Shown piece after piece: positions 12,285 to 59,019 of a stretch of 64,000 bases of DNA. The stretch is from the NCBI RefSeq assembly GCF_000526215.1, contig NZ_JAFQ01000004.1:8122001-8186000 (forward strand), given 5' to 3'. This stretch comes from Nocardia sp. BMG51109. Lineage in GTDB: Bacteria; Actinomycetota; Actinomycetes; Mycobacteriales; Mycobacteriaceae. Within the stretch, counting starts at the first letter, position 1. Each line of letters opens with the position of its first letter. Made by a program: the position numbers and the translations under genes. The notes under the pieces are model-generated. The model saw only the letters and a list, made by a program, of their open reading frames with translations. It ran no database searches and was not told where the DNA came from.

Positions 12285-13322
12285 ATGCCCGTTGACATCG
12301 CGCCGACACAGACACCCACACTCCCCCACACCGCAATTCTGGGGCTGGGCGTCTACCGTCCCGGCAAGGTGGTGACCAACGACGAGATCGCCGTGCGGCT
12401 GAATTCCAGCGACGAATGGATTCAGCAGCGCTCCGGAATTCGCAGTCGCCGGTATTGCGAGGAGGAGGAGACGCTGTTCGATATCAGCGTGGCGGCCGCG
12501 CAGCAGGCGATGAAATCCGCCGGTGTGGGACCGGAGGATATCGATTGCCTGGTGTTGGCCACGATGACGCACCAGTTCATCACGCCGGCCGCGGCGCCGT
12601 TGATCGCCACCCAGCTGGGCATCGAGAACGCGGCGGCGTTCGATCTCATCAATGCCTGCGCCGGTTTCTGCGCCGGGCTGACCCTGGCGTCCGATATGGT
12701 GCGCGCCGGCACGATGCGAAAGGTTCTGGTCATCGGCGCCGAGAAGTTCGGCGATCTGGTCGACATGGACGACCGGTCGACGGCGTTCCTGTTCGGTGAC
12801 GGCGCGGGCGCGGTCGTGGTCGGGCCGTCCGAGGATGTCGGCATCGGCCCGACCGTCTGGGGTTCGGACGGCACCAACTGGACGATGCTCGGACAGGACA
12901 AGGGCTTCTTCGACTGGGCACGGGAGGTGCAGGAGGTCGGCCGCGAGGCCAAGCGCCCGTACTTCACGATGAACGGCCCGGCCCTGTTCCGGTGGGCGGT
13001 GGGGTCGGTGGAGAAGATCTGCCGGGAGGCCCTGGACCGCGCCAAGGTGCCGATCGAGGACCTCGACGCCCTGATCCTGCACCAGGCCAACGGCCGCATC
13101 ACCGAGGCGGTGGCGCGGATGCTGAACGTACCCGACGACTGCACCGTCGCCAACGACATCGTCGAGCAGGGGAACACCTCGGCGGCCTCGGTTCCGCTGG
13201 CGATGGAGGGCGTGCTGCGCGACGGCACCGCGAAACCCGGCGATGTCGCCCTGCTCATCGGGTTCGGCGCGGGACTCACGTACACCGCGCAGGTGGTCAA
13301 GCTGCCGGGCGTACCGCAGTGA
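12285..13322 (+). CDS. Beta-ketoacyl-ACP synthase III (FabH-like)
   Basis: This 345-residue protein has a complete ketosynthase III active site: Cys in INACAGFCAG near residue 127, His in ILHQANGRI near 267 and Asn in EQGNTSAASVP near 296. The opening AILGLGVYRPGKVVTNDEIA and SSDEWIQQRSGIRSRRY are typical of FabH. The enzyme normally condenses an acyl-CoA with malonyl-ACP; relatives also act as acyltransferases in natural-product pathways. AAGGGG precedes ATG 12285. Its stop overlaps the GTG start of the acyl-ACP thioesterase by four bases (GTGA), which implies translational coupling. The PKS has its own KSQ loading module, so this KSIII is not needed to prime it. It more likely makes a separate short acyl chain. 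This is inference. Confidence 0.9.
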   Translation: MPVDIAPTQTPTLPHTAILGLGVYRPGKVVTNDEIAVRLNSSDEWIQQRSGIRSRRYCEEEETLFDISVAAAQQAMKSAGVGPEDIDCLVLATMTHQFITPAAAPLIATQLGIENAAAFDLINACAGFCAGLTLASDMVRAGTMRKVLVIGAEKFGDLVDMDDRSTAFLFGDGAGAVVVGPSEDVGIGPTVWGSDGTNWTMLGQDKGFFDWAREVQEVGREAKRPYFTMNGPALFRWAVGSVEKICREALDRAKVPIEDLDALILHQANGRITEAVARMLNVPDDCTVANDIVEQGNTSAASVPLAMEGVLRDGTAKPGDVALLIGFGAGLTYTAQVVKLPGVPQ

Positions 13323-14101
13323 GTGGCAATACCGCCGCTCCCGAGGAGCACCTGTCGACCGTCGGGTTCCGGCTCGCGCCGTTTCCCGACGGCGCCGAGG
13401 TGTTCGAGACGAGCTGGCCGGTTCGGTTGGGCGACACCGACTCCGACGGCCGCCTGCGGTTGGACGCGGTGGCGCGGTATCTCCAGGACGCCGCCTACGA
13501 CAATCTGAAGACGGCTCCCGAGGGCCGTCTGCATCAGGCCTGGCTGATCCGGCGCACCGTCATGGATGTGCTGGGCCCCATCGAATTCGGTGAGCAGGTG
13601 CGGTTGCGGCGCTGGGCCGGTGGGCTGTCGGAGCACTGGGTCGACGTGCGGGTGCGGCTCGACGGCGAGAACGGCGGCGTCATCGACACCACGTCCTTCG
13701 GGATCCACATCGACCCCGTGGCGGGGCGGCCTGCCCGGATGACCGACCGCTTCAAGGCGCCGATGCTGGCCCACACCACCGACCATCGGCTGCGGTGGAA
13801 GGCGATGCTGCGCGAGTTCCCCGGCGCCGCGGCGGACGAGACGCATCCGTTTCCGTTGCGGGTCACCGATTTCGATTGGCTGCGCCACGTCAACAACGCG
13901 GTGTACTGGGAGGTGGTCGAGGAGCATCTGCCGTCCTGGGCCGCTGCGGGCCCCTACCGCGGTGTGGTGGAACACGTCGGTGCCGTCACCGCGGGGGACA
14001 AGGTGGAGGTGCGGAGCACGGATGCCGGCTCCGCACGACGGATTCAGGTCGAGGTCGACGGTACGGCGCGGGCGCTGGCCCTGATCGAGCCGATCGGCTG
14101 A
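13319..14101 (+). CDS. Acyl-ACP thioesterase (FatA/FatB-like double hotdog)
   Basis: The protein has 260 residues from a GTG start that overlaps the KSIII stop (GTGA). It matches the acyl-ACP thioesterase family, two hotdog folds in tandem: FETSWPVRLGDTDSDGRL with ARYLQDAAYDNL in the first half, then FPLRVTDFDWLRHVNNAVYWE in the second, where HVNN marks the canonical hotdog helix entrance. It would hydrolyse an acyl-ACP to a free acid. Together with KSIII it could build and release a short or modified fatty acid for the divergent ligase. It could also serve as an editing or release thioesterase for the PKS, which has none of its own, but it is not in the PKS operon. A longer upstream frame exists only as a shadow inside the KSIII gene. 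Confidence 0.85.
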   Translation: MSGNTAAPEEHLSTVGFRLAPFPDGAEVFETSWPVRLGDTDSDGRLRLDAVARYLQDAAYDNLKTAPEGRLHQAWLIRRTVMDVLGPIEFGEQVRLRRWAGGLSEHWVDVRVRLDGENGGVIDTTSFGIHIDPVAGRPARMTDRFKAPMLAHTTDHRLRWKAMLREFPGAAADETHPFPLRVTDFDWLRHVNNAVYWEVVEEHLPSWAAAGPYRGVVEHVGAVTAGDKVEVRSTDAGSARRIQVEVDGTARALALIEPIG

Positions 14102-14139: not shown

Positions 14140-15456
14140 CTACCGTGTGCCGACGAGTCGGCGGGCTGCCTCGGCACCCGAGCGGAACGCCGCCTCGATC
14201 GGGGCGCCGCGCATGTAGTCTCCCGCGAGTTCCAGTCCGGGTGCGTCGCGCACCTCCGCCCGCACATTCTTCAGGAATTCGCCGTGGTACGGCAGATACG
14301 CGCAGTACGCCGCGTCCCACACCTTGCTCACCGAGCGGACGCGCTCGATCTGCCCGATGCCCAGCAGCCCCTTGACCCGGGCCTCGGCGTCGTCGATCCA
14401 TTCGTCGAGCCGGCCCTCCGACAGCCCGGAGCGAGCCGCCCTGCCGCTGAAGGTGTACCGGGCGATGTGCAGGTCGTCGACCCCGTAGGCGCCGACGTTG
14501 CTGCACGGTCCGTCGTCGAGCAGGATGGCCCGCACATCCGAGGTGAAGAACGGGCGATCGTATTCGACCAGCGCGACGGCCGCGGGGAAGTAGCGGACGT
14601 TCATCAGCAGGTTGCTCAGCTCGGCCATGGTGCCCTTCACGATGTCGGCCGCCGCGTGCGCGGGCGCCGCGAGCACCACGCCGTCGTAGTCGCGTTCACG
14701 CACGGGGCCACCGTTTTCCGATACCTCGAGCCCGCTCACGCGGCCGTCCCGCACGATCAGGCCCTCCACGCTCGAGTTCGCCAGAACCGAAACCCGTTCT
14801 CCCAGTGCGTCGATGACCGGGGCGATGCCGTCGGTCAGCTGATCGTAGGTGTCCATCAGCATGCCGAGATTGGTGCCGAACGTGCCGAGATACACCTCGT
14901 CCGGTTCGGCGCCGTTCATCCGGACGGTCACGGCGCGGAACATGTTGCGCTGGATGGCCGGGCCGAAATGCTCGCTCAGCGGCTTGTGGTCGTTGCGGGC
15001 GCCCAGCTTGGTGAACGTCTCGGAGCCGAGAAACCTGTTCTCCTCCTTGGAGCGCACCCGCAGCGCCAGCGAGGCCGTCTTGCCCAGATCCGAGACGGCC
15101 GCCATCTGGCGCAGCCGCTGCAACCGGCCGAGCACGGTCTGATCGCTGTCGTAGGTCAGCAGCTTGCCGTCGATCACCCGGGAGGTGTTGATGCCGAACG
15201 GTTCCAGCCGCGGGTTCCCGAGATCGGCGAGGAATTCCCGGATCGCGGAATACTTCTTGCCCATGTTCTTGCCGCCCATCATCACCCGGCGGTCGCCGAG
15301 CCGATCGAGCCCCATCCGGCCGCCCAGGAGCTGGTCGCGCTCGATGAGATCCACCCGGCAGCCGGCCTTCTGGAGATGGAAGGCGGCGGCCAGGCCGGCG
15401 ATCCCGGCGCCGACCACGGCGACCTGCTTACCGGCACTGCTGTTCTGCGTGCTCAT
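14140..15456 (-). CDS. FAD-dependent amine-oxidase/protoporphyrinogen-oxidase-like oxidoreductase
   Basis: This 438-residue protein begins, after ten residues, with the FAD-binding VAVVGAGIAGLAAAFHLQKAG and the following acidic strand end DLIERDQLLGGRMG. It ends with LELAGDYMRGAPIEAAFRSGAEAARRL, the C-terminal FAD signature of amine-oxidase/phytoene-desaturase-like enzymes. AAAGGAA lies before ATG 15456. It is the last gene of the minus-strand operon, 53 bp after the AfsA-like gene, so a role late in product formation fits, such as desaturation, aromatisation or oxidation of the released lactone. The substrate cannot be told from sequence; the catalytic middle does not point to a specific known enzyme. 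Confidence 0.75.
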   Translation of the reverse strand: MSTQNSSAGKQVAVVGAGIAGLAAAFHLQKAGCRVDLIERDQLLGGRMGLDRLGDRRVMMGGKNMGKKYSAIREFLADLGNPRLEPFGINTSRVIDGKLLTYDSDQTVLGRLQRLRQMAAVSDLGKTASLALRVRSKEENRFLGSETFTKLGARNDHKPLSEHFGPAIQRNMFRAVTVRMNGAEPDEVYLGTFGTNLGMLMDTYDQLTDGIAPVIDALGERVSVLANSSVEGLIVRDGRVSGLEVSENGGPVRERDYDGVVLAAPAHAAADIVKGTMAELSNLLMNVRYFPAAVALVEYDRPFFTSDVRAILLDDGPCSNVGAYGVDDLHIARYTFSGRAARSGLSEGRLDEWIDDAEARVKGLLGIGQIERVRSVSKVWDAAYCAYLPYHGEFLKNVRAEVRDAPGLELAGDYMRGAPIEAAFRSGAEAARRLVGTR

Positions 15457-15509
15457 GTGTGAAATTCCTTTCGGTTCAGGGTTTTTCGGCCCTGGTACTG
15501 CGGCTGGTA

Positions 15510-16487
15510 CTACGGCGAGTAGGGCGAGACTTCGACGCGGCTCTCGGCGATCCGAGTGCCGAACTGGAACATCTCGATGTCGACGTGCGCGTCGCCGAAA
15601 TCCGGGTCGTGGTCGACGCGGCAGGACAGTTCGACGGCCGCGTCCAATTCGGCGAAACCGCTGAACTTTCCGGTGACCGCGGTCGCCATGGCCACCGGCG
15701 ACTCCAGCGCGCCCGCCTCGCAGGCCACGATGAGCGAAGCCTGCCGGAAGCCCTCGAGCATCAGCGGCCCGGGGACGTGGTCGTATTCGTGATCGAAGAA
15801 CGACGGGTGCCGCCGGTTCACCACCAGCGGCAGCACCTGTCGCGAATCCGCCTCGGCGCGAGGGGAACCCACGACGACGTTGCGCGGGTCGCGCCGTCCG
15901 ACCCGCTGCGGGTCGACCGGCTCGGCGACCGGAGCCGCGTCGGCTTCCCGATCGGCCTGCTGGTGCCGGCGGAACTGCTCGTACGCCTCCGGCGGGAAGG
16001 CGATGCCGCCGCCGCGCACGATCATCGCCAGGGCGTTGCCGACCGTCACGGTCGCGGCGAACGTGTGTTCCACGAAGTACTCTCGGCCCGCCGAGCGGTC
16101 CATGCGCAGCCGCACCACGCCCTCCAGCGGTTCGATGCCCTGCTCCCGGAAGGCGCTCTGATCCTCCACCTCGATCTCCAGCCGCTGCAGGCTGAGCGAC
16201 GTGCCGCGCGGCGCCTGCAGATGGCGGTGGCCGATGACCGTCATGGCCTGGCGAACGGCCTCGACCGCGGCGAACGGGTCGTGATAGTCGGCGAGGCGGT
16301 CGAACCACAGCGAGTGGGCGCGCGGAATCTGCATGGCGGCAAGGAATTCCTCCGTGCCGACCTGTGCGGTGTCGGCCACGAAAACCTCACCCAGGCTGCG
16401 CCGATGGGCCTGCCAGCACGGGACGGTCTGCGCGAAGCTCAGGTCGCCGTGCTGGGCGGCGGGTGCGGTGAGCAGGTCTTCGGTCAT
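15510..16487 (-). CDS. AfsA-type beta-ketoacyl transferase (double hotdog), probable polyketide-releasing butenolide synthase
   Basis: This 325-residue protein has the two AfsA hotdog repeats. The first carries HSLWFDRLADYHDPFAAVEAVRQA, the second HPSFFDHEYDHVPG followed by LMLEGFRQAS; the paired Glu-xx-Arg-Gln motifs are the conserved AfsA residues. AfsA transfers a beta-ketoacyl group from a thioester to dihydroxyacetone phosphate, which then closes to a butenolide. GGAGG precedes ATG 16487. The gene starts 28 bp after the stop of the last PKS module, a thioesterase-less KS-AT-ACP that would leave a beta-ketoacyl-ACP. Release of the polyketide as an acyl-butenolide is therefore my preferred role. 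The alternative is ordinary gamma-butyrolactone signal synthesis, but no adjacent ArpA-type receptor or butenolide reductase is seen. Confidence 0.85.
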   Translation of the reverse strand: MTEDLLTAPAAQHGDLSFAQTVPCWQAHRRSLGEVFVADTAQVGTEEFLAAMQIPRAHSLWFDRLADYHDPFAAVEAVRQAMTVIGHRHLQAPRGTSLSLQRLEIEVEDQSAFREQGIEPLEGVVRLRMDRSAGREYFVEHTFAATVTVGNALAMIVRGGGIAFPPEAYEQFRRHQQADREADAAPVAEPVDPQRVGRRDPRNVVVGSPRAEADSRQVLPLVVNRRHPSFFDHEYDHVPGPLMLEGFRQASLIVACEAGALESPVAMATAVTGKFSGFAELDAAVELSCRVDHDPDFGDAHVDIEMFQFGTRIAESRVEVSPYSP

Positions 16488-16515
16488 CTCATCCTCCGAG
16501 GGGTGTTCGGCTCCA

Positions 16516-19500
16516 TCAGACCGTGACGCGGTCCCGGTCCATTTCCGTGTCGATCAGTTCGGCCAGGGCGCGCGTGGTCGGATTGGCCAGGAAGCTCGCC
16601 AGTTCGAGGACCATGCCGGTGCTGTTGTTCAGTCTGTTCCGCAGTTCGAACACCGACAGCGAGGTGAGACCGGTCTCCATGAGCGGAACGTCCACGTCGA
16701 CCTCGCCCGAATCGACCATCATCTCCTGGAGCTGGCCGCGCAGCATCGCCAGCACGAAATCCGTTCTCTCGCTCTGCGGCAGCGCGTCGCGGTCCGCGCG
16801 GAACCGCGCCGCGGCATCGGGGTCGATCTCGGAATCGGTTTCCGTATCGCAGATCTCGGTGCCGACGGTGGAGGTCGACACGGTCATCTGGATGCCGCGC
16901 CAATAGGTGCGGTGCTGGAAGGCGTAGGTGGGCAGGTCCACCGTGCGCGCCCCGGTGCCGTCGAAGACCGCCGCCCAGTGCACGCCGGCGCCGCGGACCC
17001 ACGCCTCGGCCAGCGCGCGCATCAGGCCGAGGGATTCGTCCTTGCCCGGCGGCAGCGTCGGGATCGCGACACACCGGCTGTCGGTGAGGCATTCGTAGCT
17101 CATGCCGGACAGCACGTCGCCGGGGCCGAGCTCGAGGACCGTGTCGACGCCCGCGGCGAGCAGGGATCGGACGCAGTCGTGGAACAGCACCGCCTGCCGG
17201 GCCTGGCGCGCCCAGTAGTCCGGGGTGCGGATCTCCTCCGGGTCGGCGAGCACGCCGGTGACGTTGGACAGCAACGGAATCGACGGCGCGTGCAGCGTCG
17301 CCTCGCCCACGACCTTACGGAACTCGTCGAGCATGGGGTCCAGGTGCGGCGAGTGGAACGCGCGCTGCACCCGCAGTCGCTTGATGCGGCGGCCGCGCTT
17401 GCGCCAGCTCTTGGCGAGTTCGATGACGGCGTCCTCGTCACCGGAGACGACGGTCGAGTTCGGTCCGTTGTTCGCCGCGATCGAGACCCGGCCGTCGTAG
17501 TCGCCCAGCGACTCCGAGATCTCGTCGAACGACGCGCGCACCGAGGCCATCGCACCCGGCCGCAGCCGCTGCATCAGGCGTCCCCTGGCCGCGACCACGG
17601 CAGCGGCGTCGTCGAGGCCGAACACGCCGGCGATATGCGCGGCGGACAGCTCGCCGATCGAGTGGCCGACCAGGAAATCGCCGGTGACACCCCAGGATTC
17701 GAGCAGCCGGTACAGCGCCACCTCGACCGCGAACAGCGCGGGCTGGGCGAATTCGGTGTCGTCCAGCGCGTCCGGGGCGTCGTCGAAGACGATCTCGCGC
17801 AGCGGCCGGTCGAGATGCGGCGCGAACGCGGCGCAGATCTCGTCGAATGCCGCGGAGAACCGCGGGAAGGCGTCGTAGAGCTGCCGTCCCATGGCCGGCA
17901 GCTGGCTGCCCTGCCCCGGGAACATCAGGGCCACGGTCGTCTTCTCCCCCGCCACGGTGGCGGCGACGGCCGACGCGGACGTCGTGCCCTCGGCGACCGC
18001 GGTCAGCGCGTCCCGCAACGCGTTCGGCGAATCCGCGAGCAGCACGGCCCGGTGGTCGAACGCGCCGCGGGTCGTGGCCAGCGACAGACCCATGTCGGCG
18101 AGGTCGGGCGCCGGATCGGCCGAGATGCGGGTGAGCAGCCGCTGCGCCTGGCCGCGCAGCGCGCGGGCGGTCTTGCCGGACAGCACGCACGGCGTCATCG
18201 CGGGCAGGCGGGCCTGCGCGAGGGCCGGATCGGCCGGCAGCTCCACCACATCGGGATCGCATTCGACGATGACATGAGCGTTGGTTCCGCTGAACCCGAA
18301 CGACGACACGGCTGCCCGGCGCACCCGGCCCGGATTCGGCCACGGCATCGACTCGGTGGCCAGCCGGATCTCGCCCCGGGACCAGTCGACGTGCGTCGAC
18401 GGCTCGTCCACGTGCAGCGTCTGTGGCACGACGCCGTGCCGCATCGACAGGACCATCTTGATGATGCCCGCGACGCCCGAGGCCAATTGGGTATGCCCCA
18501 TATTCGATTTGATGGATCCGAGCACCAGCGGCTGCGCGCCCTGGCGCTGCCCGTAGGTCGCGAGCAGGGCCCGCGCCTCGATCGGATCGCCCAGCATGGT
18601 GCCGGTGCCGTGGCCGTCCACCACGTCGACCGCCGACGCGGGCAGTCCGGCGTCGTCCAGGGCCTGGCGGATTACCCGTTGCTGCGCAAGGCCGTTCGGT
18701 GCGGTCAGGCCGTTCGACGCGCCGTCCTGGTTCAGCGCCGAGCCGCGCAGCACGCCCAGGATGCGCCGGCCGTTGCGCTGAGCGTCCGACAGGCGTTCCA
18801 GCGCAAGGATTCCCACGCCCTCCGACCATGCGGTGCCGTCGGCGGCCGTCGCGAACGCCTTGCAGCGGCCGTCGGGGGACAGCGCGCCCTGCCGCGAGAA
18901 GATCACGTACAGGCCCGGAGTCGGCATGATGGTCACGCCGCCGGCCAGCGCCAGCGAACACTCCCCCGACCGCAGCGCCCGGACGGCCTGGTGGATCGCC
19001 ACCAGCGACGAGGAGCAGGCGGTGTCCACGGCGACGGCCGGGCCCTCCAGGCCGAGCAGATAGGAGATACGGCCGGTCAGAATGCTGGGCGTATTGCCAA
19101 GGAACGCATAGGTTTCCGCGCCGACCGTCTCCTGATCGGCCAGCTCCGACCAGCCCGCGTAACCGTAGTGACCGCAGCCGATGAAGACGCCGGTGTCGGT
19201 GCCGCGCAACGAGGTCGGGTCGATCCGCGCCCGCTCGACCGCCTCCCAGCCGACCTCCAGCACGAGGCGCTGCTGCGGATCCATCATCAGCGCCTCGCGC
19301 GCCGAGATGCCGAAGAAGCCCGCATCGAATTCGGCGGCGCCGGTGAGGAACCCGCCGTATCCGACGGTCGGCATGGTGGGGTCGGCGGTCAGGTCGGCCG
19401 CGCTCGGCCAGCCGCGCTCGGCCGGGAATTCGGAGACGACGTCGCGGCCGGAGGACACCATGTCCCACAGGTCCCCCGGCGAGTTCACCTCGCCCGGGTA

Positions 19501-19632
19501 CCGGCAGGCCATGCCCACGATCGCGATCGGCTCGGACAGCCGCGACTGCACGTCCTGCAATCGCTGCCTGGTCTCGTAGAGTTCGCGCGCCGCCTTCTTC
19601 AGGTATTTGCGGAGTTCCTCGTCACTGGCCAT
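16516..19632 (-). CDS. Type I PKS, final extension module 7 (KS-AT-ACP, malonyl, no thioesterase)
   Basis: The 1038-residue protein begins with a coiled-coil docking segment ([18 protein letters not shown]). The KS follows, with Cys206 in [17 protein letters not shown] and [12 protein letters not shown] Ser658 lies in GHSIGE, with RAFH at the specificity site, both malonyl-type. The ACP attachment Ser991 is in GLTSLS, where Thr replaces the usual Asp before Ser. There is no KR, DH, ER or TE, so the last unit should leave as an unreduced beta-ketoacyl-ACP. ATG 19632 is preferred over the in-frame GTG 19641 because GAGGTGG then sits at normal spacing. It lies 22 bp after the second PKS gene and 28 bp before the AfsA-like gene. 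Confidence 0.93.
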
Positions 19633-19654
19633 ATTTCCCACCTCGTGCGCTACG

Positions 19655-22600
19655 TCAGCTCATCTGATCGATGAACTCGAAAAGCTCGCCGTCGTCGGCG
19701 CCTTCCAATTTGTCGGCCATACCGCCGTCGTTCTCCCCTTCGAGTTCACGCAGGACGGCGCCGAGCCGGGTCGCTACTTCGGTGCGATCCCGCTCCCCCA
19801 AGGCCGCCGCGGCACAGCGCTGTGCCAGGGCCTCGATCTCGGACATGAGTTGGTCGGTCGGATTCTCGTCGGGGGCGATTTCCTGACGGATGTATTCGGC
19901 GAGGGCGGCCGGGGTCGGATACTCGAACATGGCCGCGGCCGACAGCATGATGCCCAGCGCCGGCCGGAGTCGATTGCGGAATTCCATGATTCCGAGCGAA
20001 TCGAAGCCTATCTCGTTGAACGGCTTGTGGGAACTGATCGCCTCCGCCGACTGATGACCGAGCACCGTCGCGGCGTGCGAGCGGATTACGCCCAGAATGG
20101 TTTCGATCTGCTGCTCGGGAGTCAGTCCGGTCAAGCGCACCCCGGATTCGGCGGTGACCGCGGCGCCGCCTTCCGCCACGGGCCGGGATCCGCGCGACAG
20201 TCCGCGCAGCACCGGCGGCAGATCCTCCGGGGCCAGGGCCGCGAGCGCCGCGCGGTCGATGTGCACCGCGACGGCCGCGGCGGTGCCGGTCTCCAGCGCC
20301 GTGTCGTAGAGCGCCATTCCCTCGGCGTCGGACAGGGGCAGGAAACCCTGGCGGCGCATGCGTTGCAGGTCCTGCTGTCCGAGGCGGCTGGCCATTCCGC
20401 TCTGCCGCCACGGGCCCCACGCCAGCGACAGCGCGGGCAGGCCGGCCAGGTGGCGGTTGCGGCACAGGGCGTCCAGGAAGGCGTTCGCCGCGGCGTAGTT
20501 GGCCTGTCCGGGACCGCCGAGGACGCCGGCGACCGAGGAATACACCACGAACGCCGACAGATCGAGATGTCCGGTGGCCTCGTGCAGATTCCATGCCGCG
20601 TCGACCTTCGGCCGGAACACCGTGTCGAGTTGTTCGGGTGTCATCGATTCGAACGTTCCGTCGGCGACGACACCCGCGGTGTGGATCACCGCGGTCAGGG
20701 GTCGCCGCACGGCGTCGATCAACGCCGTCACCGCGTTTCGGTCCGCCGTATCGCAGGCGACGATATCGACCTCGGCGCCGGATTCGGTCAGCTCGGCCGC
20801 GAGTTCGGCGGCGCCCTCGGCGTCGGGGCCCCGGCGGCTCGCGAGCACGAGGTGCCGCGCACCGTGCGCCGCGACGAGGTGGCGGGCGGCCGCGGCACCG
20901 AGACCGCCTGTCCCGCCGGTGATCAGCACCGTCCCTTCCGGATTCAGGGGCACCGGAATGGTGAGCACGTTCTTGCCGATGTGCCGGGCCTGGCTCATGA
21001 ATCGCAGCGCCTCCGGCATTTCCCGGATATCCCACGAGGTCACCGGAAGCGGTGGCAGTTCCCCGGATTCGAACAGGCAGGCCAGTTCGACCATGATCTC
21101 GTGGACCCGATCGGGATCGGCGCTCATCAGGTGGAAGTTGCGGTATTCCACGCCGGGGTGCCGGTCGGCGACCTCGGCCGGGTCGCGCAGATCGTTCACG
21201 CCCATGTCGAGGTAGCGTCCGCCGTCGGCGAGCAGCCGCAGCGAGGCGTCGACCAGTTCGCCGGCCAGCGAGGCCAGCACGACGTCCACGCCGCGTCCGC
21301 CGGTGCCGACCGAGAACTTCTCCTCGAATCCGGGGGTCCGCGAGTCGGCGATCCGATCGTCGCCGAATCCCATCTCCCGCAGCACCTTCCACTTCGGGGT
21401 GCTCGCGGTGACGTAGAGGTCCAGGCCGAGGTGGCGGGCCAGGTGCACGCCCGCCATGCCCACGCCGCCGGTGGCCGCGTGCAGCAGCAGCGACTCGCCG
21501 GGGCGGACCTTCGCCAGGTCCACCAGCCCGTAGAAGGCCGTCGCGTAGACCACCGGTGCGGCGGCGGCCTGCGCGAACGACCAGCCGGTCGGCATCGGGA
21601 CCACCATGCGCCGGTCCACCACGGCGGTGGAGCGGAGGCCCGGCATGAAGCCCATCACCCGGTCCCCGGGGGCGTACTCGGTGACGTCGGGGGCCACCTC
21701 GAGCACCACGCCGGAGCCCTCGCCGCCGATCGCGGCGTCGGCGTCGGGATACATGCCGAGCACGATCAGGGCGTCGCGGAAGTTCACGCCCACCGCGCGC
21801 AGCGAGATGCGCACCTGGCCGGGGTCGAGCGGGCGGTGCGCGTCCGGATCGTCGGCCAGCGCCAGGTTGTCGGCGGTGGTCGTGCCCTTCCCCAGCGGCG
21901 TCAGCCGCCACTCCGAGCCGCGGAGCCGTTCGACCGGGCCGACCACGTCGGACTCCTTGCGGGCCAGGCGGGCCACGTGCATGTCGCCGTGCCGCAGGGC
22001 TGTCTGCGGTTCGTCGACGTCCAGGGCTCGTTCGACGGCCTCGCGCAAGGGTGTGCGGTCGTCGATGTCGACCAGGACGATGCGGCCGGGGGCTTCGTGC
22101 TGGGCGCTGCGGAGCAGGCCCCAGACCGCGGCACCGGTGAGATCGACCTGTTCCGAGGGATGGACGGCCACCGCGCGCTGGGTCACCACCACGACCCGTG
22201 CGGCCGGGGTGTCGCCGGACAGCCGCGACCGGACGTGTGCCAGCAGGTCGCCGACCCGGCCTCGCAGTGCGGTCGCGAACTCGATGTCGTTGTGCGACCC
22301 GGTGATTCGCAGTACCGCCGCGGCGCGGCCGTCGGCCGGTTCCACGATCTCGGTCTTCGGTCCCGAGCCGTTGCCGCTCCCGTTCACCGCCGGAGTGGTC
22401 CAGCGATAGGAGGCCGCTTCGGGTTCGGTGTCGAGCCGGGTCCATTCCAGGTCGAACAGGGGGGCACTGCGCCGACTGTCCAGCTGGTTCGGCGAGAGTG
22501 GCCGTGCGACAAGTTTTCTCACGGAGACCACGGGTTCACCGGCGTCCGACGCGGCCGTCACCGAGACCGACGTGTCGGAGGTTTGTGTGATCCGCACCCG

Positions 22601-25600
22601 CAGCCGGGTGGCGCCGGCCGCGTGGAAGTTCACGCCCTCCCAGGAGAACGGCAGCATCGTCCGGTCGTCGTCGCGGCCCAGCACGAGGGCGTGCAGGGCG
22701 GCGTCGAACAGCGCCGGGTGCAGGACGAATCGGTCGTCGCGGTCGGTGTCGCGGAGGGTGACCTCGGCGAAGATGTCCTGGCCGCGTCGCCAGCAGGCGC
22801 GCAGTCCCCGGAAGGCGGGTCCGTATCCGAAACCGTTGTCGCTCAACGTCTCGTAGAGGCCGTCGACCGGGACGGGCTCGGCCGCCGCCGGTGGCCACTC
22901 CGGCAGCTCGGGCGCGGGCGGCGTGGCGGCCGTGAGAATGCCCTTGGCGTGGGTCGTCCAGGGTTCGTCGGCGGCGCCGTCGCCCGCGCGGGAGTAGATA
23001 CCGGCAGTCCGGCGACCGTCGGTGTCGCCGCCGTCCACGACGACCTGGATCTGCACGGCCTCGACCGGGGGCAGCACCAGGGGTGCCTCGAGGGTGAGTT
23101 CTTCGAGTCCGCCGCAACCGGTTTCGTCGCCGGCGCGGATCACCATCTCGACCAGGGCGGTGCCGGGCACCAGGACGGTGCCCTGGATGGCGTGGTCGGC
23201 CAGCCACGGGTGAGTGCGCAGGGACAGTCGTCCGGTGAGGATCAGGCCGCTGGAGTCGGCGGTCGCGAGGAGGCCGCCGAGCAGCGGGTGATCGATTCTG
23301 TTCAACCCGGCCGCGGCGGCGTCGGGGTCGTCCGCGGGGGCTTCCAGCCAGCACCGCTGGCGTTGGAAGGGGTAGGTCGGCAACGGGATTCGGCGGTGGT
23401 TACCGGGGTAGAAGGCGTTCCAGGACACCGGGACTCCGGCCGTCGAGAGCTGTGCCAGGGCCGAGACGACCGTGTCGACGGCGGGGGCCTTGGTGCGCAG
23501 AGTTGTCGTACACCACGGCTGGTGCGATTCTCCGGTCACGCACTCCTGGATCAGCGCGGACAGCGCGCCTCCGGGACCCGTTTCGACGAACCCGCCGACT
23601 CGCTGCTGCTCGAGCCACCGCACGCTGTCGGCGAACCGCACCGGCTCCCGCACATGCCGCACCCAGTACCCGGGGTCGGTGTGGTCGGCATCCGCGGAAC
23701 CCGTCAGATTCGACACGATCGGGATGCGAGGCTCCTCGAACGCCAATCCCGCAGCTAGCGTGGCGAACTCGGCCAGCATCGGCGCCATGTGCGGGGAATG
23801 GAAGGCGTGGCTGACCGGCAACCGCTTGGTCTTGCGATCCGCGAACTCGGCCGCGATCCGTGCCACCGCGCCCTCGTCACCGGAGATCGTCACCGACTCC
23901 GGGCCGTTGATCGCCGCTATGGCCACCTCGTCCTCGTGCCCGGCCAGCACCGCAAGCACCTCGTGTTCGGCGGCGGCGAGCGCCACCATGGCGCCGCCGG
24001 TCGGCAAGGCCTGCATCAGCCGGCCGCGCGCCGCCACCAGCGCACACGCATCCCGCAGCGACAGCACACCGGCCACATGCGCCGCGGTCAACTCCCCGAT
24101 CGAATGTCCCAGCAGATAATCCGGCCGGACACCCACATGCTCGAACAACCGGAACAGCGCCGCACCGACCGCGAACAGCCCGGACTGCGCGAAGACCGTC
24201 TGGTCGACCAAATCCGCGAGGTCCGATCCCGGTTCGGCGAAGACCACATCGCGAACCGGGGCAGCCACATGGCCGGCCAGCTCCGCGTCCAAGCTCGCAC
24301 AGATCTCGTCGAACGCCTCTCGGAACACCGCCGACGACTCGTAGAGGTCGCGGCCCATACCGGCCCACTGCGAACCCTGACCGGGGAACACGAACACCAC
24401 TGCGCCCGAACCGGTTGCGGCGGTGCCGTGGACGACGCCGGGTGCCTCCTCGCCCTGCGCCAGCGCCGACAATCCGGCCAGCAGGTTGTCGCGGCCACGG
24501 CCCCAGACGATCGCGCGATGCTCGAACAGCTTGCGGCCGTTCAGCAGCGACCAGCCGATATCGGTCGCGGACGCTTCCCGATCCTCGCCCGCGAACGCGG
24601 CGAGCCGTTGCGCCTGAGCCCGCAGTGCCGGCGCGCTGTGTCCCGAGAGAACCCACGGAACCATGCCGGCGTCGAACGCGGGCCGCGGATTGATTGCCGA
24701 GGCGGGGGTTTCGACCGGCGGCGCTTGCTCGAGGATGACGTGGGCGTTGGTGCCCGAGATGCCGAACGACGACACCCCGGCACGCCACGGCCGATCCACC
24801 TCCGGCCACGACCGCGCCTCGGTCAGCAGCTCCACCGCGCCGTCGGTCCAATCCACCTGTGGTGTCGGCTCGTCCACATGTAGCGTCTTCGGCAGGCTCC
24901 CGGCACGCATCGCCATGACCATCTTGATCACACCCGCCACACCGGCAGCGGCCTGGGAATGGCCGATATTGGATTTCAGCGAACCCAACCAGAGCGGACT
25001 GTCCGGCGAACGATCCCGGCCATAGGTCGCCAGCAGAGCCTGCGCCTCGATCGGATCGCCCAATGTCGTTCCCGTGCCGTGCGCTTCGACCGCGTCGACC
25101 TCGGTGGGTGAGAGTCCCGCGTTGGCCAGCGCCTGCCGGATCACCCGCTGCTGCGACGGACCGTTCGGCGCCGTCAGGCCGTTGCTCGCGCCGTCCTGGT
25201 TGACCGCGCTGCCCCGCAGCACCGCCAGCACCGGATGGCCGTTGCGGCGGGCGTCGGAAAGGCGTTCCAGCAGAATGATTCCCGCGCCTTCGGACCATCC
25301 CGTGCCGTCCGCGGCCGCGGCGAAGGACTTGCATCGCCCGTCGGGGGACAGTCCGCGCTGCCGGGAGAATTCCACGAACAGCCCCGGAGTCGCCAATACC
25401 GTCACGCCACCGGCCAGCGCCAGCGAGCACTCACCGGACCGCAGCGAGTTCGCCGCGAGATGCATGGACACCAGCGACGACGAGCATGCCGTATCCACCG
25501 TGACCGCCGGGCCCTCGAACCCGAACGAGTACGCCACCCGCCCCGACACCACGCTGCCCGCATTGCCGCTGCCCCAGAATCCCTCGATCTCCGCGGGAAG

Positions 25601-26015
25601 GCCGGTCGAGGAGAACCGTGACGCGTAGTCGGCGTACATCACGCCGGCGAAGACGCCGGTCTGGCTGCCCTTCAGGGTCGAGGGATCGATGCCCGCCCGC
25701 TCGAACACCTCCCAGGACGTCTCCAGCAGCAACCGCTGCTGCGGATCGGTCGCCAATGCCTCGCGGGGCGACATCCCGAAGAAGCCGGGATCGAAATCGG
25801 CCGCGTCGTAGACGAATCCGCCGTCGCGCACATACGACTTCCCGGTGGTCTCGGGGTCCGGATCGAACAGCCCGTCCACGTCCCAGCCGCGGTCGGAGGG
25901 CCACGGCCCCACCGCATCCCGGCCGGACGCCACCAGATCCCACAGGGCCTCCGGCGAGGTCACGCCGCCCGGATAGCGGCACGCCATCGCGACGATCGCG
26001 ATCGGTTCGTCGGCG
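19655..26015 (-). other. PKS module 6: KS-AT(malonyl)-DH-ER-KR-ACP
   Basis: KS Cys3711; AT Ser4172 in GHSIGE with HAFH (malonyl); DH His4475 in [12 protein letters not shown] near 5047 with [15 protein letters not shown] near 5232 with VAD where other modules have LDD, keeping the diagnostic Asp; ACP Ser5540 in [12 protein letters not shown]. The part after the DH differs clearly in wording from all other modules. Full reduction to methylene is expected. Confidence 0.85.
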
Positions 26016-29000
26016 GCGGCCGCCGGCACCGCGGCCGGTGTCGGTGCGGCCGAATCGGTTCCGCTGATCTCCTCGACCAGGTGCCGGGCCAGTGCGCGCG
26101 GGGTCGGGTAGTCGAAGACCGCGCTGGCGGGCAGTTTCACGCCGGTCGACGCCGACAGCCGGTTGCGCAGTTCGACGCCGGTCAGCGAGTCGAAACCCTG
26201 GTCGGTGAAGGCGCGGTCGACGTCGATGCCCGAGGCGTCGGGGTGGCCGAGCACGACCGCGCCGTCTCCGCGCACCAATGCCAGGGCGTGCGCATGGCGT
26301 TCGTCCTCCGCCATACCGAGCAACCGCTGCACCCACCCGCCGTCGGCCGATGCCGTGCCCGCCGCAGTTCGGCGGGTCCGGCTCCGGACCAGCCCGCGCA
26401 CGACCGACGGGACGATATCCGTGGCGGTCCAGGCCGTCGGGTTCAGCCGGGCGGTCACCAGCGCGGCCTCGTCGGCGGTGAGGGCGGCATCGAACAGCGC
26501 CAGGCCGTCCCGGACGGTCATCGGGGCGATTCCCGCTCGCCGCATGCGCACCAGGTCGGCGTCGCGCAGGCCGCCGGTCATCGCGCTGGCGCTGTCCTGT
26601 TCCCACAGGCCCCACGCCATCGATACGGCCGGCAGCCCGAGCGATCGGCGATAGCCCGCGAGGGAGTCCAGGAAGACGTTCGCGGCCGCGTAATTGGCCT
26701 GTCCCGCACCGCCGATGGTCCCGGCGATGGACGAGAACAGCACGAACGCCCGCACATTCGCGGTTCGGGTGAGTTCGTGGAGATTCCACGCACCCGCGAT
26801 CTTGGGCGCCAGTACCCGATCGAGGTGCTCGGGCGTCATCGACTCGAATACCGCATCGTCGAGAACTCCCGCCGCATGCACGACCCCGGTCACCGGCACC
26901 CCGGTCAGAACGCGGCCGAGCGCCTCCCGATCGGCCACATCGCAGGCGGCGACCTGGACCTCGGCGCCCAGTTCCGTCAGCTCCGCGACCAGATCCGCGA
27001 CATCGGCCGCCCGGCCGCCACTGCGGCTGATCAGCAACAGGCCGCGGACGTCATGGGCGCAGACCAGGTGCCGGGCCACGACCGCGCCGAGCCCGCCGGT
27101 GCCACCGGTGATCACCACGGTGCCGTCGCCCCAGGACGCCGGCTCGGAGACCCGCTCGCCGCCGCGGCGGGCCAGCCGCGGCGCCGACATGTCGCCGCGA
27201 CGGATCCTGATCTCGGTCTCCGGTGCGACCGCCGCCGCGGGCAGCGCCGCCCAGGACTCGTCGGCGTCGTCGATGTCCACCAGGGCGATCCGGCCCGGAT
27301 TCTCCGTCTGTGCCGAGCGGATCAGGCCCCGCACCGGCGCCGACAGCAGGCCCGGCAGGTCGTCCGCCGCGCCACGGACGACGACGAGTAGACGCGATTC
27401 GGCGAACCGTTCGTCGGCCAACCATGCCTGCACCGAGGACAGCGCGTCCCCGGTCACCCGCCGCGCCCCGTCGATCGTCTCCTCGGCGGGGTCCGCGCAG
27501 AACACGAGGACGTCCGGAACCGGTTGTCCCGCCTCGATATCCGACCGGAGACCGGTGAGATCGGCACTGGTCTGCGCGGCGATCCGGGACAGCTCGGGAT
27601 TGAACGGCCGTTCCCCGACTGCCGCCCAGCGCGTGTCGGCGGCGGGCGTGGCAGCGGGGACGGGGAGCCAGTCGGTGTGCAGCAGGCTCTCGCGGACGAT
27701 GTCGCCGCCCTGCCGGAACTGCTCCGGGGATACCGTTCGCACCGTGAGGTTTTCGACGGTCGCGACCGGACTGCCGGCCTGATCGGCCACCAGGATCGAC
27801 ACGGTGTCGTCGCCGGTCACCGTGAGCCGGGCCCGCAGTGCCACCGCGCCGGTGGCGTGCAGCGACACGCCTCGCCACGAGAACGGCAGGCCCGCGACCG
27901 CGCCACCCGCGGCGCGGAACCCGTTCAGCACCAGCACCTGTAGCGCCGCGTCGAACAGCGCCGGATGCAGCCCGAACCGGTCGACGTCGTCGCGGGCGGT
28001 TTCCGGCAGTGCGACCTCGGTGTAGAGCCGGCCGTCGCGCCGCCAGACCGCTTGCAGGCCTTGGAATGCCGGGCCGTACTCGAAACCGCCCGCGGCCATC
28101 TCGTCGTAGGCGGCGTCGAGATCGAGCGGGTCCGCGTCGGCCGGCGGCCATGCCGTCAGGTCGTCCGGCGCGCCGATCGGCGCCGTGGCGACGAGGACAC
28201 CGCCGGCGTGGCGGACCCATCCCGCGGCGCCGCCGGTCCGGGCGAACACCGTGACGGTCCGGTGCCCGCCGCGGTCGGCATCGACGACGACCTGGATCTG
28301 CACGTCCCCCGCCGGAGGTATCACCAGCGGCGCCTCCATCGTGAGTTCTTCCACACTGCCGCAACCGGTTTCGTCACCGGCACGCACCACCATCTCCAGC
28401 AGTGCGGTGCCGGGGACGATCACGGTGCCGTGCACGGCGTGGTCGGCCAGCCACGGATGGGCGCGCAGAGACAGCCGTCCGGTGAGGGTCAGTCCGTCGG
28501 AATCGGCGGCGGTCAGGGCCGCGCCCAGGAGCGGGTGATCAATGGCGTCCAGTCCCGCCGCGGCGGCGTCCGCCTCGGCCGCGGGCACATCCAGCCAGTA
28601 CGGCTGCCGCTGGAACGCGTACGTCGGCAACGGCACCGAGCGGACGGAGCGGCCGGCGAACAGGACATCCCAGTCGACCGGGACTCCCCAGGCCGACACC
28701 TGAGCCAGCGCCGAGAGGAAGCGGACCGGGCCGCCCTCGTCGCGGCGCAGCGTGCCGACGACCTTCGCGGGACCGTCGAGGGCCTCGAGCGTCTCCTCGA
28801 TGCTCGCGGTCGACACCGGGTGCGGGCTCATTTCGATGAAGCAACGCATGCCCTGCTCGGCCAGCAATGCGGTCGTGTCGTGGAACCGCACCGGCTGCCG
28901 CAGGTTCGTGAACCAGTAGTCCGCGCTCAGGTTCACCGTATCCAGAAGCTCGCCGGTGACGGTCGAACAGAACGGGATGTCCGACGTCACCGGCACGATT

Positions 29001-32000
29001 CCGGCGAGGTCGTCCAGCAGCCGCTCGCGAACAGCGTCCACCTGCGGCGAATGCGATCCGTAATCCACCGGAATCCGCCGGACCCGAACCTCATCGGCCG
29101 ACAACGCGTCGAACAGCTCGTCCAGCGCGGCACTCTCACCCGAAACCACCACCGTCGCCGGACCGTTCACCGCAGCGACCGCGATCCGCTCGGACCAGCG
29201 ACCGAGATACGCCTCCACCCGGTCCCGCGGCAACGACACCGACATCATCCCGCCCGTACCCGCCAGCACCGTCAACGCACGGCTCCGCAACGCCACCACC
29301 CGGGCCGCGTCCTCCAAAGACAGTGCGCCGCAGACGTATGCGGCAGCAATCTCACCCTGCGAATGACCGACCACCGCAGCCGGACGCACACCACACGCCT
29401 GCCACACCCGCGCCAGCGACACCATCACCGCGAACAACGCCGGCTGGACGACATCCACACGGTCGAGCGACGCCGCACCCGGGGCATCCGTCAGCACATC
29501 CGCCAGCGACCACTCCACGAACGGCGACAACGCCTCCTCACACCGCCCGATCTCCGCGGCGAACACCGGCGACGACACCAGCAACTCCCGGCCCATGCCG
29601 ACCCACTGCGAACCCTGACCGGGGAACACGAAAACGACGCCCCCGGAACCGGACCCCGCCACACCACGGACAACGTTCGCCGCTTCTCCGCCTCCAGCAA
29701 CCGCCGCCAACCCGGCCAGCAGATCCTCCCGGTCAGCACCGCACACGACCGCCCGATGCTCGAACAGCTTGCGGGTGGAGACCAACGACCAGCCCACATC
29801 GGCCGCGGACAGCCCCGCGTCCGCGTCGACGACCGACGCCAACCGCTGCGCCTGCCCCGCCAGCGCCGCCGCGCTCCGGGCCGAGAGCACCCACGGCACG
29901 GCCGCCGTATCCGGCGCGAACACCGGCTCGACAATCATGGTGCCGGGGACGACCTCGGGCTCGGCCGCCGTGCCGGACGGCGCCTGCTCGAGGATGACAT
30001 GGGCATTGGTGCCCGAAATGCCGAACGACGACACCCCGGCACGCCACGGCCGCTCGACCTCCGGCCACGACCGCGACTCGGTCAGCAGTTCCACCGCGCC
30101 GGCCGACCAATCCACCTGCGGTGTCGGCTCGTCCACGTGCAGGGTCTTCGGCAGGACGCCTGCCCGCATGGCCATGACCATCTTGATCACACCCGCCACA
30201 CCAGCGGCCGCCTGCGCATGACCGATATTCGATTTCAGCGAACCCAGCCACAGCGGATTGTCCGGCGCACGGTCGCCGCCGTACGCCGCCAGCAGGGCTT
30301 GCGCCTCGATCGGATCGCCCAGTGTCGTTCCCGTGCCGTGCGCTTCGACCGCGTCCACGTCGGCGGGCGCGACTCCGGCATTGGCCAGCGCCTGCCGGAT
30401 CACCCGCTGCTGCGACGGACCGTTCGGAGCCGTCAACCCGTTACTCGCACCGTCCTGATTGACCGCGCTGCCCCGCAGCACCGCCAGCACCGGATGGCCG
30501 TTGCGGCGAGCGTCCGAGAGTCGTTCCAGCAGCAGCACTCCGGCGCCCTCGGACCACCCGGTGCCGTCGGCCGCCGCGGCGAACGACTTGCACCGACCGT
30601 CGGAGGCCAGGCCCCGTTGTCGCGAGAACTCCACGAACAGGGCCGGAGTCGCCAGCACCGTCACACCACCGGCCAGCGCCAGCGAACACTCACCCGACCG
30701 CAGCGAGTTCGCCGCGAGATGCATCGACACCAGCGACGACGAACACGCCGTATCCACCGTGACCGCGGGGCCCTCGAATCCGAACGAGTACGCCACCCGC
30801 CCCGACACCACGCTGCCCGCGCTGCCGCTCCCCGAGAATCCCTCCATTTCCGGCGGAAGCGACCCGGCGAACCGCGAGGAATAGTCGGCGTACATGACAC
30901 CGGTGAAGACCCCGGTCTGGCTGCCCTTCAGGGTCGACGGATCAATACCGGCCCGCTCGAACACCTCCCACGACGACTCCAGCAGCAACCGCTGCTGCGG
31001 ATCGGTCGCGGCCGCCTCGCGCGGCGACATCCCGAAGAAGCCGGGATCGAAATGTGCTGCGTCGTAGACGAATCCGCCCTCACGCACATACGACTTCCCG
31101 AGCGCGTCGGGATCCGGGTCGAACAGCGCCTCGGCATCCCAGCCACGATCGGACGGCCACGGCCCGACGGCGTCGCGGCCCGAGGCCACCAGCTCCCACA
31201 GCTCCTCCGGTGAGCTGACGCCGCCCGGATAGCGGCAGGCCATCGCCACGATCGCGATCGGCTCGTCGGTGCCCACCGCCACCGTGGCCGGGGTGGCCGG
31301 GGCCGCCGTGCCGCAGATCTCGTCGACGAGATGGTCCGCCAGCGCCCGCGGCGTCGGGTAATCGAAGACGGTGCTGGCCGGCAGCTTCAGGCCTGTCGAG
31401 GCGGACAGGCGGTTGCGGAGTTCGACACCCGTCAGCGAGTCGAAGCCCTGTTCGGTGAACGCGCGCTCGACATCGATGCCGGCGGAATCGCGGTGGCCCA
31501 GGACGACCGCCGCCTGCGCACGCACCAGATCCACGGCGCGCGAACGCCGTTCGGCCTCGGTGGACGCGATCAGTTGCTGCGCCCAGCCCGCACCGGCGGC
31601 GCCGTCCACGGCCGTCACGCGCCGCGTCCGGGCGCGGACCAGGCCGCGCAGCTTCGAGGGCACGGCATCGGCGCTCGTCCAGGCGGCGGCGTTCAGGCGC
31701 GCGGTGACGACCTCCGGCCTCCCGGCGGCCAGGGCGGCGTCGAACAGGGCCAGGCCCTCGGTGACGCTCATCGCCCGGACACCCGATCGCCGCATCCGCG
31801 CGAAATCGGCCTCGCGCAGGCCGCCGGTCATCGTACTGGCGCTGTCCTGCTCCCAGAGCCCCCAGGCCATCGAGACGGCGGGCAGGCCCAGCGACCGGCG
31901 ATGGGTCGCGAGGGCGTCCAGGAAGACGTTCGCGGCCGCGTAATTCGCCTGTCCCGCACCGCCGATGGCTCCGGCGAGGGACGAGAACAACACGAAGGCG

Positions 32001-36616: not shown

Positions 36617-36651
36617 CTGCATCCTCTTCCCAGACGGAAACGCCGCCGCCG

Positions 36652-57768: not shown

Positions 57769-57879
57769 AACACTCTTCACATAGGTGCGTCGTGACATGA
57801 CTCTGGGCGCGGATCGCCGCGAAATCAGTGGAAAACTCGATACCAAGAATTGGCGGGCATGCAACTAATTCACAGGGTC

Positions 57880-59018: not shown

Positions 59019-59019
59019 C

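What the first reader, a model, noticed from the sequence alone, without database searches (positions are those of the whole stretch)
14140..19632. AfsA-type release of a modular polyketide as an acyl-butenolide
The sequence shows a last PKS module that is KS-AT-ACP with no reductive domains and no thioesterase, followed 28 bp later by a full-length AfsA homologue with both hotdog motifs. AfsA enzymes are known to transfer a beta-ketoacyl group from a thioester to dihydroxyacetone phosphate, and this module would present exactly a beta-ketoacyl-ACP. An AfsA-like domain has been proposed for butenolide formation in the Burkholderia product gladiofungin/gladiostatin (from memory). Here the enzyme would be free-standing and serve a cis-AT actinomycete PKS. 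The FAD enzyme last in the operon may finish the butenolide.
Basis: partly seen in the sequence, partly recalled or inferred. Interest (0 to 1): 0.88.

Follow-up and report, generated by a model that had tools for sequence, protein, structure and literature searches.

The report
Stand-alone AfsA polyketide release cassette
A Nocardia gene cluster appears to cut a long polyketide chain off its assembly line with a separate AfsA-type enzyme that makes a small lactone ring, and a flavin enzyme of unknown chemistry travels with it.

Summary
A seven-extension-module cis-AT PKS ends in a separate KS-AT-ACP protein without thioesterase; a double-hotdog AfsA follows after 28 nt, then a PPOX/amine-oxidase-like FAD enzyme. 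The unit is conserved: 17 of 17 other Nocardia loci with AfsA at least 47% identical (one a paralogue in the same genome) have such a KS-AT-ACP directly before AfsA, with a malonyl-type AT and an unusual ACP motif (GLTSL). With AfsA beside other actinomycete PKSs they form one clade, apart from annotated ScbA/BarX genes. The paralogue cassette has a single module fed by a fatty-acyl-ligase-like protein. Best reading: AfsA condenses the beta-ketoacyl-ACP with DHAP and releases an acyl-butenolide phosphate, as shown in vitro for the gladiostatin PBS domain. New here: the enzyme is free-standing, the PKS is cis-AT, and in 37 Nocardia genomes the FAD gene was found only near AfsA (31 of 31) and never beside the same AfsA as a HAD phosphatase (69 AfsA rows: 26 FAD, 14 HAD, 0 both, 29 neither). 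The FAD enzyme may replace the phosphatase; its reaction is unknown. No activity or product was shown.

The parts
16516..19641 (-). Terminal PKS protein (extension module 7): docking-KS-AT(malonyl-type)-ACP, no reductive domain, no TE
   Evidence: Pfam; AT GHSIGEL/RAFHSP and ACP TGLTSL motifs; start GTG 19641 or ATG 19632
16552..16722 (-). ACP domain of the terminal module, motif GLTSL (Thr in place of Asp before the phosphopantetheine Ser)
   Evidence: PF00550 residues 974-1030; GLTSL in 17 of 17 related loci; GFDSL in the 14 other ACPs caught by the scan and in the window's other modules
15510..16487 (-). Free-standing AfsA homologue (double hotdog): proposed chain-release phosphorylated-butenolide synthase
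   Evidence: PF03756 two stretches; AF2 pLDDT 92.6; hotdog fold; clade
14140..15456 (-). FAD enzyme of the PPOX/amine-oxidase superfamily with an invariant GGKN motif, partner of AfsA
   Evidence: PF01593; alignment A3; fold; 31 of 31 family members within 25 kb of an AfsA
19655..36622 (-). PKS protein 2: modules 4 (DH-KR), 5 (DH-KR), 6 (malonyl-type AT, DH-ER-KR)
   Evidence: Pfam; motifs
36652..57864 (-). PKS protein 1: loading KSQ-AT-DH-ACP, modules 1 (DH-ER-KR), 2 (KR; DH without a HxxxGxxxxP match), 3 (DH-KR); start codon uncertain
   Evidence: Pfam; motifs (DTAQSSS in the loading KS)
13319..14101 (+). Convergent acyl-ACP thioesterase (PF01643): considered as rival releaser; a homologue is in the fetched stretch of only 1 of the 17 other loci
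   Evidence: Pfam (run on the frame from 12992); GTG at 13319 read
12285..13322 (+). KASIII/FabH-like gene next to the acyl-ACP thioesterase; membership of the cluster unclear
   Evidence: Pfam, NCBIfam
58113..59030 (-). SDR oxidoreductase upstream of PKS1, separated by a 26-nt-arm inverted repeat (58040-58094); weak candidate only
   Evidence: Pfam; repeat; its closest relatives mostly unlinked to AfsA

Best explanation
A chain-release cassette. Module 7 adds one malonyl unit without reduction and holds a beta-ketoacyl-ACP with a free alpha-CH2 (inferred from domains and motifs). The separate AfsA enzyme moves this acyl group to dihydroxyacetone phosphate; the ester closes by an intramolecular aldol (Knoevenagel) step to a 2-acyl-3-(phosphooxymethyl)butenolide, which frees the chain in place of a thioesterase (inferred from the gladiostatin PBS domain and AfsA). 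The FAD enzyme then works on this head group, probably where other AfsA systems use a HAD phosphatase (inferred from linkage only; reaction unknown). Predicted chain, from motifs: C17 backbone with four methyl branches, three double bonds, a hydroxyl (or fourth double bond) from module 2, two saturated carbons next to the keto group, plus the C3 unit. Step likelihoods: beta-ketoacyl-ACP substrate 0.9; AfsA release 0.8; DHAP as partner 0.75; FAD enzyme acts on the head group 0.6.
For: Architecture. Conservation: 17 of 17 loci L037-L053 have a separate TE-less KS-AT-ACP protein ending -67 to +3 nt from the start of the AfsA match; last AT FHS-type (malonyl) and ACP GLTSL in 17 of 17. Graded series: own paralogue L044 has one PKS protein (ACP-KS-AT-ACP) plus an AMP-ligase-ACP (FAAL-like) gene after the FAD gene; L043 has two modules in the locus; the window has seven. 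Phylogeny: 45-row PKS-linked group, support 99/95 and 100/100, with KS or AT within 7 kb upstream in 44 of 45. No PF00975 TE nearby. FAD linkage 31 of 31. Precedent: PBS domain with DHAP in vitro (PMC7756379, passages) and afsA-domain deletion abolishing gladiofungin (PMC7756420, passages).
Against: No product or activity is known. The meanings of the AT, KSQ and ACP motifs are recalled, not computed. A Pfam AfsA hit cannot tell DHAP from another partner. No HAD phosphatase was found in the window with two HAD queries (other phosphatase families not searched), so loss of phosphate is unexplained unless the FAD enzyme or a housekeeping phosphatase does it; 29 of 69 AfsA rows have neither partner within 25 kb, so a linked partner is not obligatory. 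An acyl-ACP thioesterase lies 38 nt from the FAD gene, convergent. The ScbR-receptor test did not discriminate. L054, inside the group, has no adjacent PKS; L064, outside it, has a PKS-like KS (58%) 6.7 kb downstream.
Confidence: 0.78

Rival explanations
1. AfsA is a gamma-butyrolactone signal synthase that merely sits in the PKS operon and regulates it.
For: AfsA family membership and a partial match to the ScbA/BarX model; signal synthases often lie beside PKS genes in Streptomyces (general knowledge); the one-module paralogue (L044) could make a signal-like acyl-butenolide.
Against: In 17 of 17 loci directly after a TE-less beta-keto module; below the ScbA/BarX equivalog cut-off; outside every group that holds the four annotated plasmid AfsA rows, three of them named ScbA/BarX, two of which (L119, L120) sit beside ScbR and SARP genes; no ScbR-type hit listed near it (not discriminating, since none is listed near the other Nocardia AfsA either).
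Confidence: 0.12
2. The convergent acyl-ACP thioesterase (13319-14101) or another hydrolase releases the chain as a beta-keto acid, which decarboxylates or forms a pyrone.
For: PF01643 gene 38 nt from the FAD gene; also near the cassette in L038.
Against: A homologue is in the fetched stretch (about -12 to +7 kb) of only 1 of the 17 other loci, while AfsA is in 17 of 17; no PF00975 TE nearby.
Confidence: 0.06
3. AfsA condenses the beta-ketoacyl-ACP with a different small ketose, or acts only as a hotdog thioesterase.
For: The 50 structure matches listed are hotdog thioesterases, dehydratases and other hotdog enzymes; other butenolide synthases, AvrD (xylulose) and MmyD (a pentulose, proposed), use other ketoses, though they are not called AfsA (PMC12593393, passages); no HAD phosphatase found in these loci.
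Against: It keeps the residues that are invariant in all 50 aligned AfsA rows, PKS-linked or not (the window is itself one of the rows); 14 AfsA in other groups have a HAD phosphatase nearby, as expected for a DHAP product.
Confidence: 0.1

Closest known systems
Gladiostatin/gladiofungin PBS (AfsA-like) release domain, Burkholderia gladioli (PMC7756379, PMC7756420: passages read)
   Same: AfsA-family enzyme at the end of a TE-less PKS whose last module is to deliver a beta-ketoacyl-ACP; acyl-butenolide release, condensation with DHAP shown in vitro
   Different: There a C-terminal domain of a trans-AT PKS, with a HAD phosphatase GlaP and an NADP-dependent oxidoreductase GlaG in the cluster (PMC10574677, passages); here a separate gene, cis-AT PKS, an FAD enzyme and no HAD phosphatase found, actinomycete
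AfsA/ScbA/BarX gamma-butyrolactone synthases of Streptomyces
   Same: Full-length free-standing double-hotdog protein, same conserved motifs
   Different: Substrate there is a fatty-acyl-type beta-ketoacyl thioester (recalled); two of the fetched named loci sit with ScbR and SARP genes; different place in the tree; score below the equivalog cut-off
SRB/SAB/methylenomycin-furan synthases with phosphatase partners (SrrX/SrrP, SabA/SabP, MmfL/MmfP)
   Same: AfsA plus a linked enzyme that processes the phosphorylated butenolide
   Different: Partner there is a phosphatase, with other enzymes (SabP; SrrP; MmfP as phosphatase recalled); here a PPOX-like flavoenzyme that was never found beside the same AfsA as a HAD phosphatase
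Protoporphyrinogen oxidase/amine-oxidase flavoprotein superfamily
   Same: Fold and FAD-binding core (2ive/2ivd first, TM 0.71-0.80; PF01593)
   Different: 21-22% identity; own family with invariant GGKN and other motifs; its 31 members in 37 Nocardia genomes all lie near AfsA

Membership tests
AfsA family (PF03756) | Two AfsA hotdog domains with conserved H/R/E/Q and HP..FxDHxxDHxPG...E..RQ motifs | tested here: met
   fold
AfsA family (PF03756) | Condenses a beta-ketoacyl thioester with DHAP | not testable with these tools
   needs an enzyme assay
ScbA/BarX gamma-butyrolactone synthase (NF041195 equivalog) | Score at or above the curated cut-off of 200 bits | tested here: not met
   179.2 bits
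GBL signalling system (AfsA plus ArpA/ScbR receptor) | ScbR-type receptor gene next to AfsA | tested here: inconclusive
   no listed hit near the window, but none near the other Nocardia AfsA either; at most 75 candidates per genome were scored and the list is cut
PBS-type PKS chain release (gladiostatin kind) | Terminal PKS module delivers beta-ketoacyl-ACP and lacks a TE | tested here: met
   by domain content:
PBS-type PKS chain release (gladiostatin kind) | AfsA is a C-terminal domain of the PKS | tested here: not met
   separate gene with a stop codon between, in the window and in 17 of 17 loci
PBS-type PKS chain release (gladiostatin kind) | HAD phosphatase in the cluster | tested here: not met
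   no match in the window with two HAD queries; none of the 17 strong HAD matches within 25 kb of any of the 18 AfsA of this group
PBS-type PKS chain release (gladiostatin kind) | Release with DHAP shown | not testable with these tools
   needs an ACP-loading assay
Tetronate release (FkbH/glyceryl-ACP and FabH-like enzyme) | FkbH homologue in the cluster | not tested
   no FkbH-specific search; none among the ORFs given to Pfam

The most novel reading that the evidence does not exclude
The FAD enzyme is a new kind of butenolide-processing enzyme: it takes the place of the phosphatase and removes phosphate from the AfsA product by flavin-dependent oxidation or redox-neutral elimination, giving a head group not seen in gladiostatin or in GBLs. 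KS-AT-ACP, AfsA and this enzyme form a portable off-loading cassette that evolution has attached to chains from one to seven modules across actinomycetes.
Probability: 0.33. Interest if true: 0.82.

Novelty: new variant of a known kind. Interest (0 to 1): 0.68.

Why it matters
In the passages read here, AfsA-type release is described as a terminal domain fused to the assembly line. A free-standing version working in trans on cis-AT actinomycete lines, with a recognisable ACP motif and a defined partner, would be easy to find by genome mining and to move between assembly lines. It would also mean that some AfsA genes annotated as signal synthases are PKS release enzymes (P0047 and P0055 of this group carry the ScbA/BarX name). 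The either-or pattern of FAD enzyme and HAD phosphatase makes the open question of how phosphorylated butenolides are elaborated directly testable.

Tried and rejected
ScbR receptor proximity: no listed hit near any AfsA of either kind, so it does not separate the readings. The SDR at 58113-59030: of its relatives at 65-69% identity only the one in G021 is linked to AfsA, while a different SDR (45-50%) sits before the PKS in six loci (L043, L046, L048, L050, L052, L053); not taken as a firm part. FabH (66%), acyl-ACP TE (51%) and FadD11-like (62%) matches recur near the cassette only in L038; other loci show only 25-28% FadD11 matches. A PDB sequence match for AfsA: none. Promoter/terminator scans: nothing. 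In the plasmid collection the only matches to the FAD enzyme are eight Aliiroseovarius records at 25%; the genes annotated 'FAD-dependent monooxygenase' near three of the four fetched plasmid AfsA are therefore not detectable relatives. Literature: the ten searches listed no actinomycete cis-AT PKS with AfsA release; the library is open-access only, one search listed 20 of 27 papers and one search listed 20 of 33, and the styrolide paper that PMC12304814 cites for a butenolide is not held. PMC3848822 holds only general butyrolactone remarks.

The FAD/HAD table rests on one FAD query and one HAD query and on genomes chosen because contexts had been looked at: FAD was searched in 37, HAD in 36 (without G018), and the 69 AfsA rows come from those 36. 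One row is a short fragment (G009:C62). Its Fisher p is not corrected for kinship. Three of the 17 strong HAD matches are unlinked: G044, G137, and G072, where the match is on another contig. One FAD-family gene (G044:C14:401477) has an in-frame stop. Three long-branch rows (L117, L115, L064) were kept in the tree and dropped in that, where the four annotated plasmid rows do not group together. Thioesterase absence was tested with PF00975 only.
Full report
What is there. The window lies at 8,122,001-8,186,000 of contig C4 of an 8.79-Mb genome. The genus is Nocardia, inferred because contigs of its congeners have the same lengths as named Nocardia contigs. On the minus strand the order is PKS1 (57864 to 36652), PKS2 (36622 to 19655), PKS3 (19641 or 19632 to 16516), AfsA (16487 to 15510) and an FAD enzyme (15456 to 14140). 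Gaps are small: 28 nt between PKS3 and AfsA, 53 nt between AfsA and the FAD gene. Downstream, 38 nt away and convergent, is an acyl-ACP thioesterase gene with a KASIII gene before it.

The assembly line. Pfam and motif reading of each module give: loading KSQ-AT-DH-ACP (DTAQSSS); M1 DH-ER-KR; M2 KR with a DH without a HxxxGxxxxP match; M3, M4, M5 DH-KR; M6 DH-ER-KR; M7 KS-AT-ACP only. AT motifs read as methylmalonyl for loading, M1, M3, M4, M5 and malonyl for M2, M6, M7; these readings and KSQ are recalled rules. The predicted chain is a C17 backbone with four methyl branches, three double bonds and a hydroxyl (or fourth double bond), saturated next to an unreduced beta-keto group. A malonyl unit last matters, because the butenolide needs a free alpha-CH2.

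Conservation of the terminal unit. A search of 150 Nocardia genomes with the AfsA protein gave matches in 91. Besides the window there are 17 full-length matches at 48-63%, nine at 40-44%, and the rest at 36% or less apart from one short 52% fragment; the tblastn gives slightly different figures, 47-61% and 39-44%. I fetched surroundings for 40 loci. In 17 of 17 loci of the top group (L037-L053, one of them a paralogue at 1.90 Mb in the same genome) a KS-AT-ACP lies directly before AfsA, as a separate protein whose stop codon is -67 to +3 nt from the start of the AfsA match. The last AT has the FHS malonyl-type motif and the ACP the motif GLTSL in 17 of 17; the 14 other ACPs that the scan caught in these loci read GFDSL. 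A DH-ER-KR module stands directly before it in 12 of 17; in L042 the locus is cut at a contig end inside the preceding module, L047, L049 and L051 have a DH-ER-KR module after AfsA instead, and L044 has none. AfsA is followed directly by the FAD gene in 14 of 17; in L047, L049 and L051 it is 16-17 kb away. In several named loci (for example L080-L083, L087, L088) the AfsA and FAD frames overlap at the stop and start codons.

A graded series. The paralogue cassette (L044) has a single PKS protein, ACP-KS-AT-ACP, then AfsA, FAD and an AMP-ligase-ACP (FAAL-like) gene, so a fatty acid would be extended once and then released. L043 has two modules in the locus; the first begins with a docking-like stretch, so an upstream partner elsewhere is possible. 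The window has seven. The constant part is KS-AT-ACP, AfsA and FAD.

Wider distribution and phylogeny. One scan of the genome collection gave 40 loci: further Nocardia, a MAG, and Nonomuraea, Streptomonospora, Spongiactinospora, Microtetraspora, Frankia, Nocardiopsis, Kitasatospora, Yinghuangia and Streptomyces, mostly at 39-44%, with four at 26-32%. Of the 40, 35 have KS or AT on the same strand within 7 kb upstream (L078-L112); several are the same genomes as the G handles. In L055 a type II thioesterase-like gene lies between PKS and AfsA (read from sequence), and similar gaps are seen in its relatives. A tree of 63 AfsA proteins puts 45 on one side of a branch (99/95), with the window's group as 19 rows (100/99). 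A second tree of 64 rows, with four annotated plasmid rows added and three long branches dropped, repeats this (100/100 and 99/96), and none of the four falls among the 45. KS or AT lies within 7 kb upstream in 44 of the 45; L054 is the exception. Of the 14 contexts read outside this group none has a modular-PKS-like KS (40% or more) upstream; L066 has weak KS (31%) and AT (27%) matches upstream and L064 a 58% KS 6.7 kb downstream. Two annotated ScbA/BarX loci (L119, L120) sit beside ScbR and SARP genes.

The AfsA protein. Double hotdog, AF2 pLDDT 92.6. No solved structure matches by sequence, and none of the 50 listed fold matches is called an AfsA; they are hotdog thioesterases, dehydratases and relatives. 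Twenty-five residues are invariant across 50 aligned AfsA proteins, the window being one of the rows. It scores 179 bits against NCBI's ScbA/BarX equivalog, below the cut-off of 200.

The FAD enzyme. PPOX/amine-oxidase superfamily by sequence and by a model with pLDDT 92.3. Its family shows invariant GGKN, FGxN and RYTFSG motifs in 21 rows. Searches of 37 Nocardia genomes found 31 family members; the weakest scores 318 bits, while in the 20 genomes searched with a loose threshold the next match scores 60.5. All 31 lie within 25 kb of an AfsA gene, 23 of them within 1.5 kb. It also pairs with AfsA where no modular PKS was seen in the fetched stretch (L067-L070; L066 has only weak KS and AT matches), so it most likely acts on the head group and not on the chain. 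A HAD phosphatase, the type present in the gladiofungin cluster (GlaP, PMC10574677), is near other AfsA: 14 of 17 strong HAD matches lie within 25 kb of an AfsA. No AfsA has both: of 69 rows in 36 genomes, 26 have FAD only, 14 HAD only, 29 neither, 0 both (Fisher p 0.0006, not corrected for kinship). I infer that the FAD enzyme takes over the fate of the phosphorylated butenolide. The 29 with neither show that a linked partner is not always needed. A flavoenzyme doing a redox-neutral elimination is proposed in methylenomycin biosynthesis (MmyE, PMC12593393, passages); it is an analogy, and no relationship was tested.

What is known. AfsA-type release was shown by in vitro condensation with DHAP for gladiostatin (PMC7756379, passages) and by domain deletion for gladiofungin (PMC7756420, passages). 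The latter lists end-standing AfsA domains in Gloeobacter, Paenibacillus and Ruminiclostridium. My searches (open-access papers only; listings, two of them cut) showed no report of a free-standing AfsA releasing a cis-AT actinomycete polyketide. That is not proof of absence.

Verdict. It works like PBS release but is not a member in the strict sense, since it is neither fused nor trans-AT and no HAD phosphatase was found. The product and both enzyme activities remain untested.

Noticed in passing
G000:C4:1897828-1917745 (L044): Second cassette in the same genome: ACP-KS-AT-ACP, AfsA, FAD enzyme, AMP-ligase-ACP (FAAL-like), with a divergent AMP-binding ligase; a simpler system for bench tests.
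   Followed up: partly
window 8757-12182 (-): One 1141-aa frame joins a Baeyer-Villiger-type monooxygenase-like part (PtlE model) to a FadD11-like acyl ligase part; an unusual fusion.
   Followed up: no
window 36652-57864, loading module: Loading module is KSQ-AT-DH-ACP: a dehydratase domain without any KR in a decarboxylating loading module.
   Followed up: no
G021 (L038), G067 (L037), G013, G137, G044: Five clusters carry a second, more distant FAD-family copy (43-49%) about 11-23 kb upstream of AfsA; the G044 copy has an in-frame stop.
   Followed up: partly
L067-L070: AfsA plus FAD pair with a divergent stand-alone acyltransferase and no modular PKS seen; L068 also has other flavoproteins, an aminotransferase, a carrier-protein-like gene and a KS: a different pathway using the same pair.
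   Followed up: partly
window 980-5772: DegT/DnrJ aminotransferase, a formyltransferase-like frame (read from sequence only) and a carbamoyltransferase: possibly a separate tailoring or sugar cluster.
   Followed up: no
window 62854-63912 (-): Polyprenyl synthase resembling a family 2 encapsulin cargo protein (NF041169, 385.5 bits, below the cut-off of 450).
   Followed up: no
window 58040-58094: Near-perfect inverted repeat with 26-nt arms between the SDR and the PKS operon.
   Followed up: no
L037-L053, last KS: The first catalytic His of the terminal KS lies in EGHGTGT in 17 of 17 loci (DGHGTGT in the window), against the usual EAHGTGT (recalled), which 7 of the 8 group-2 proteins listed keep.
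   Followed up: no
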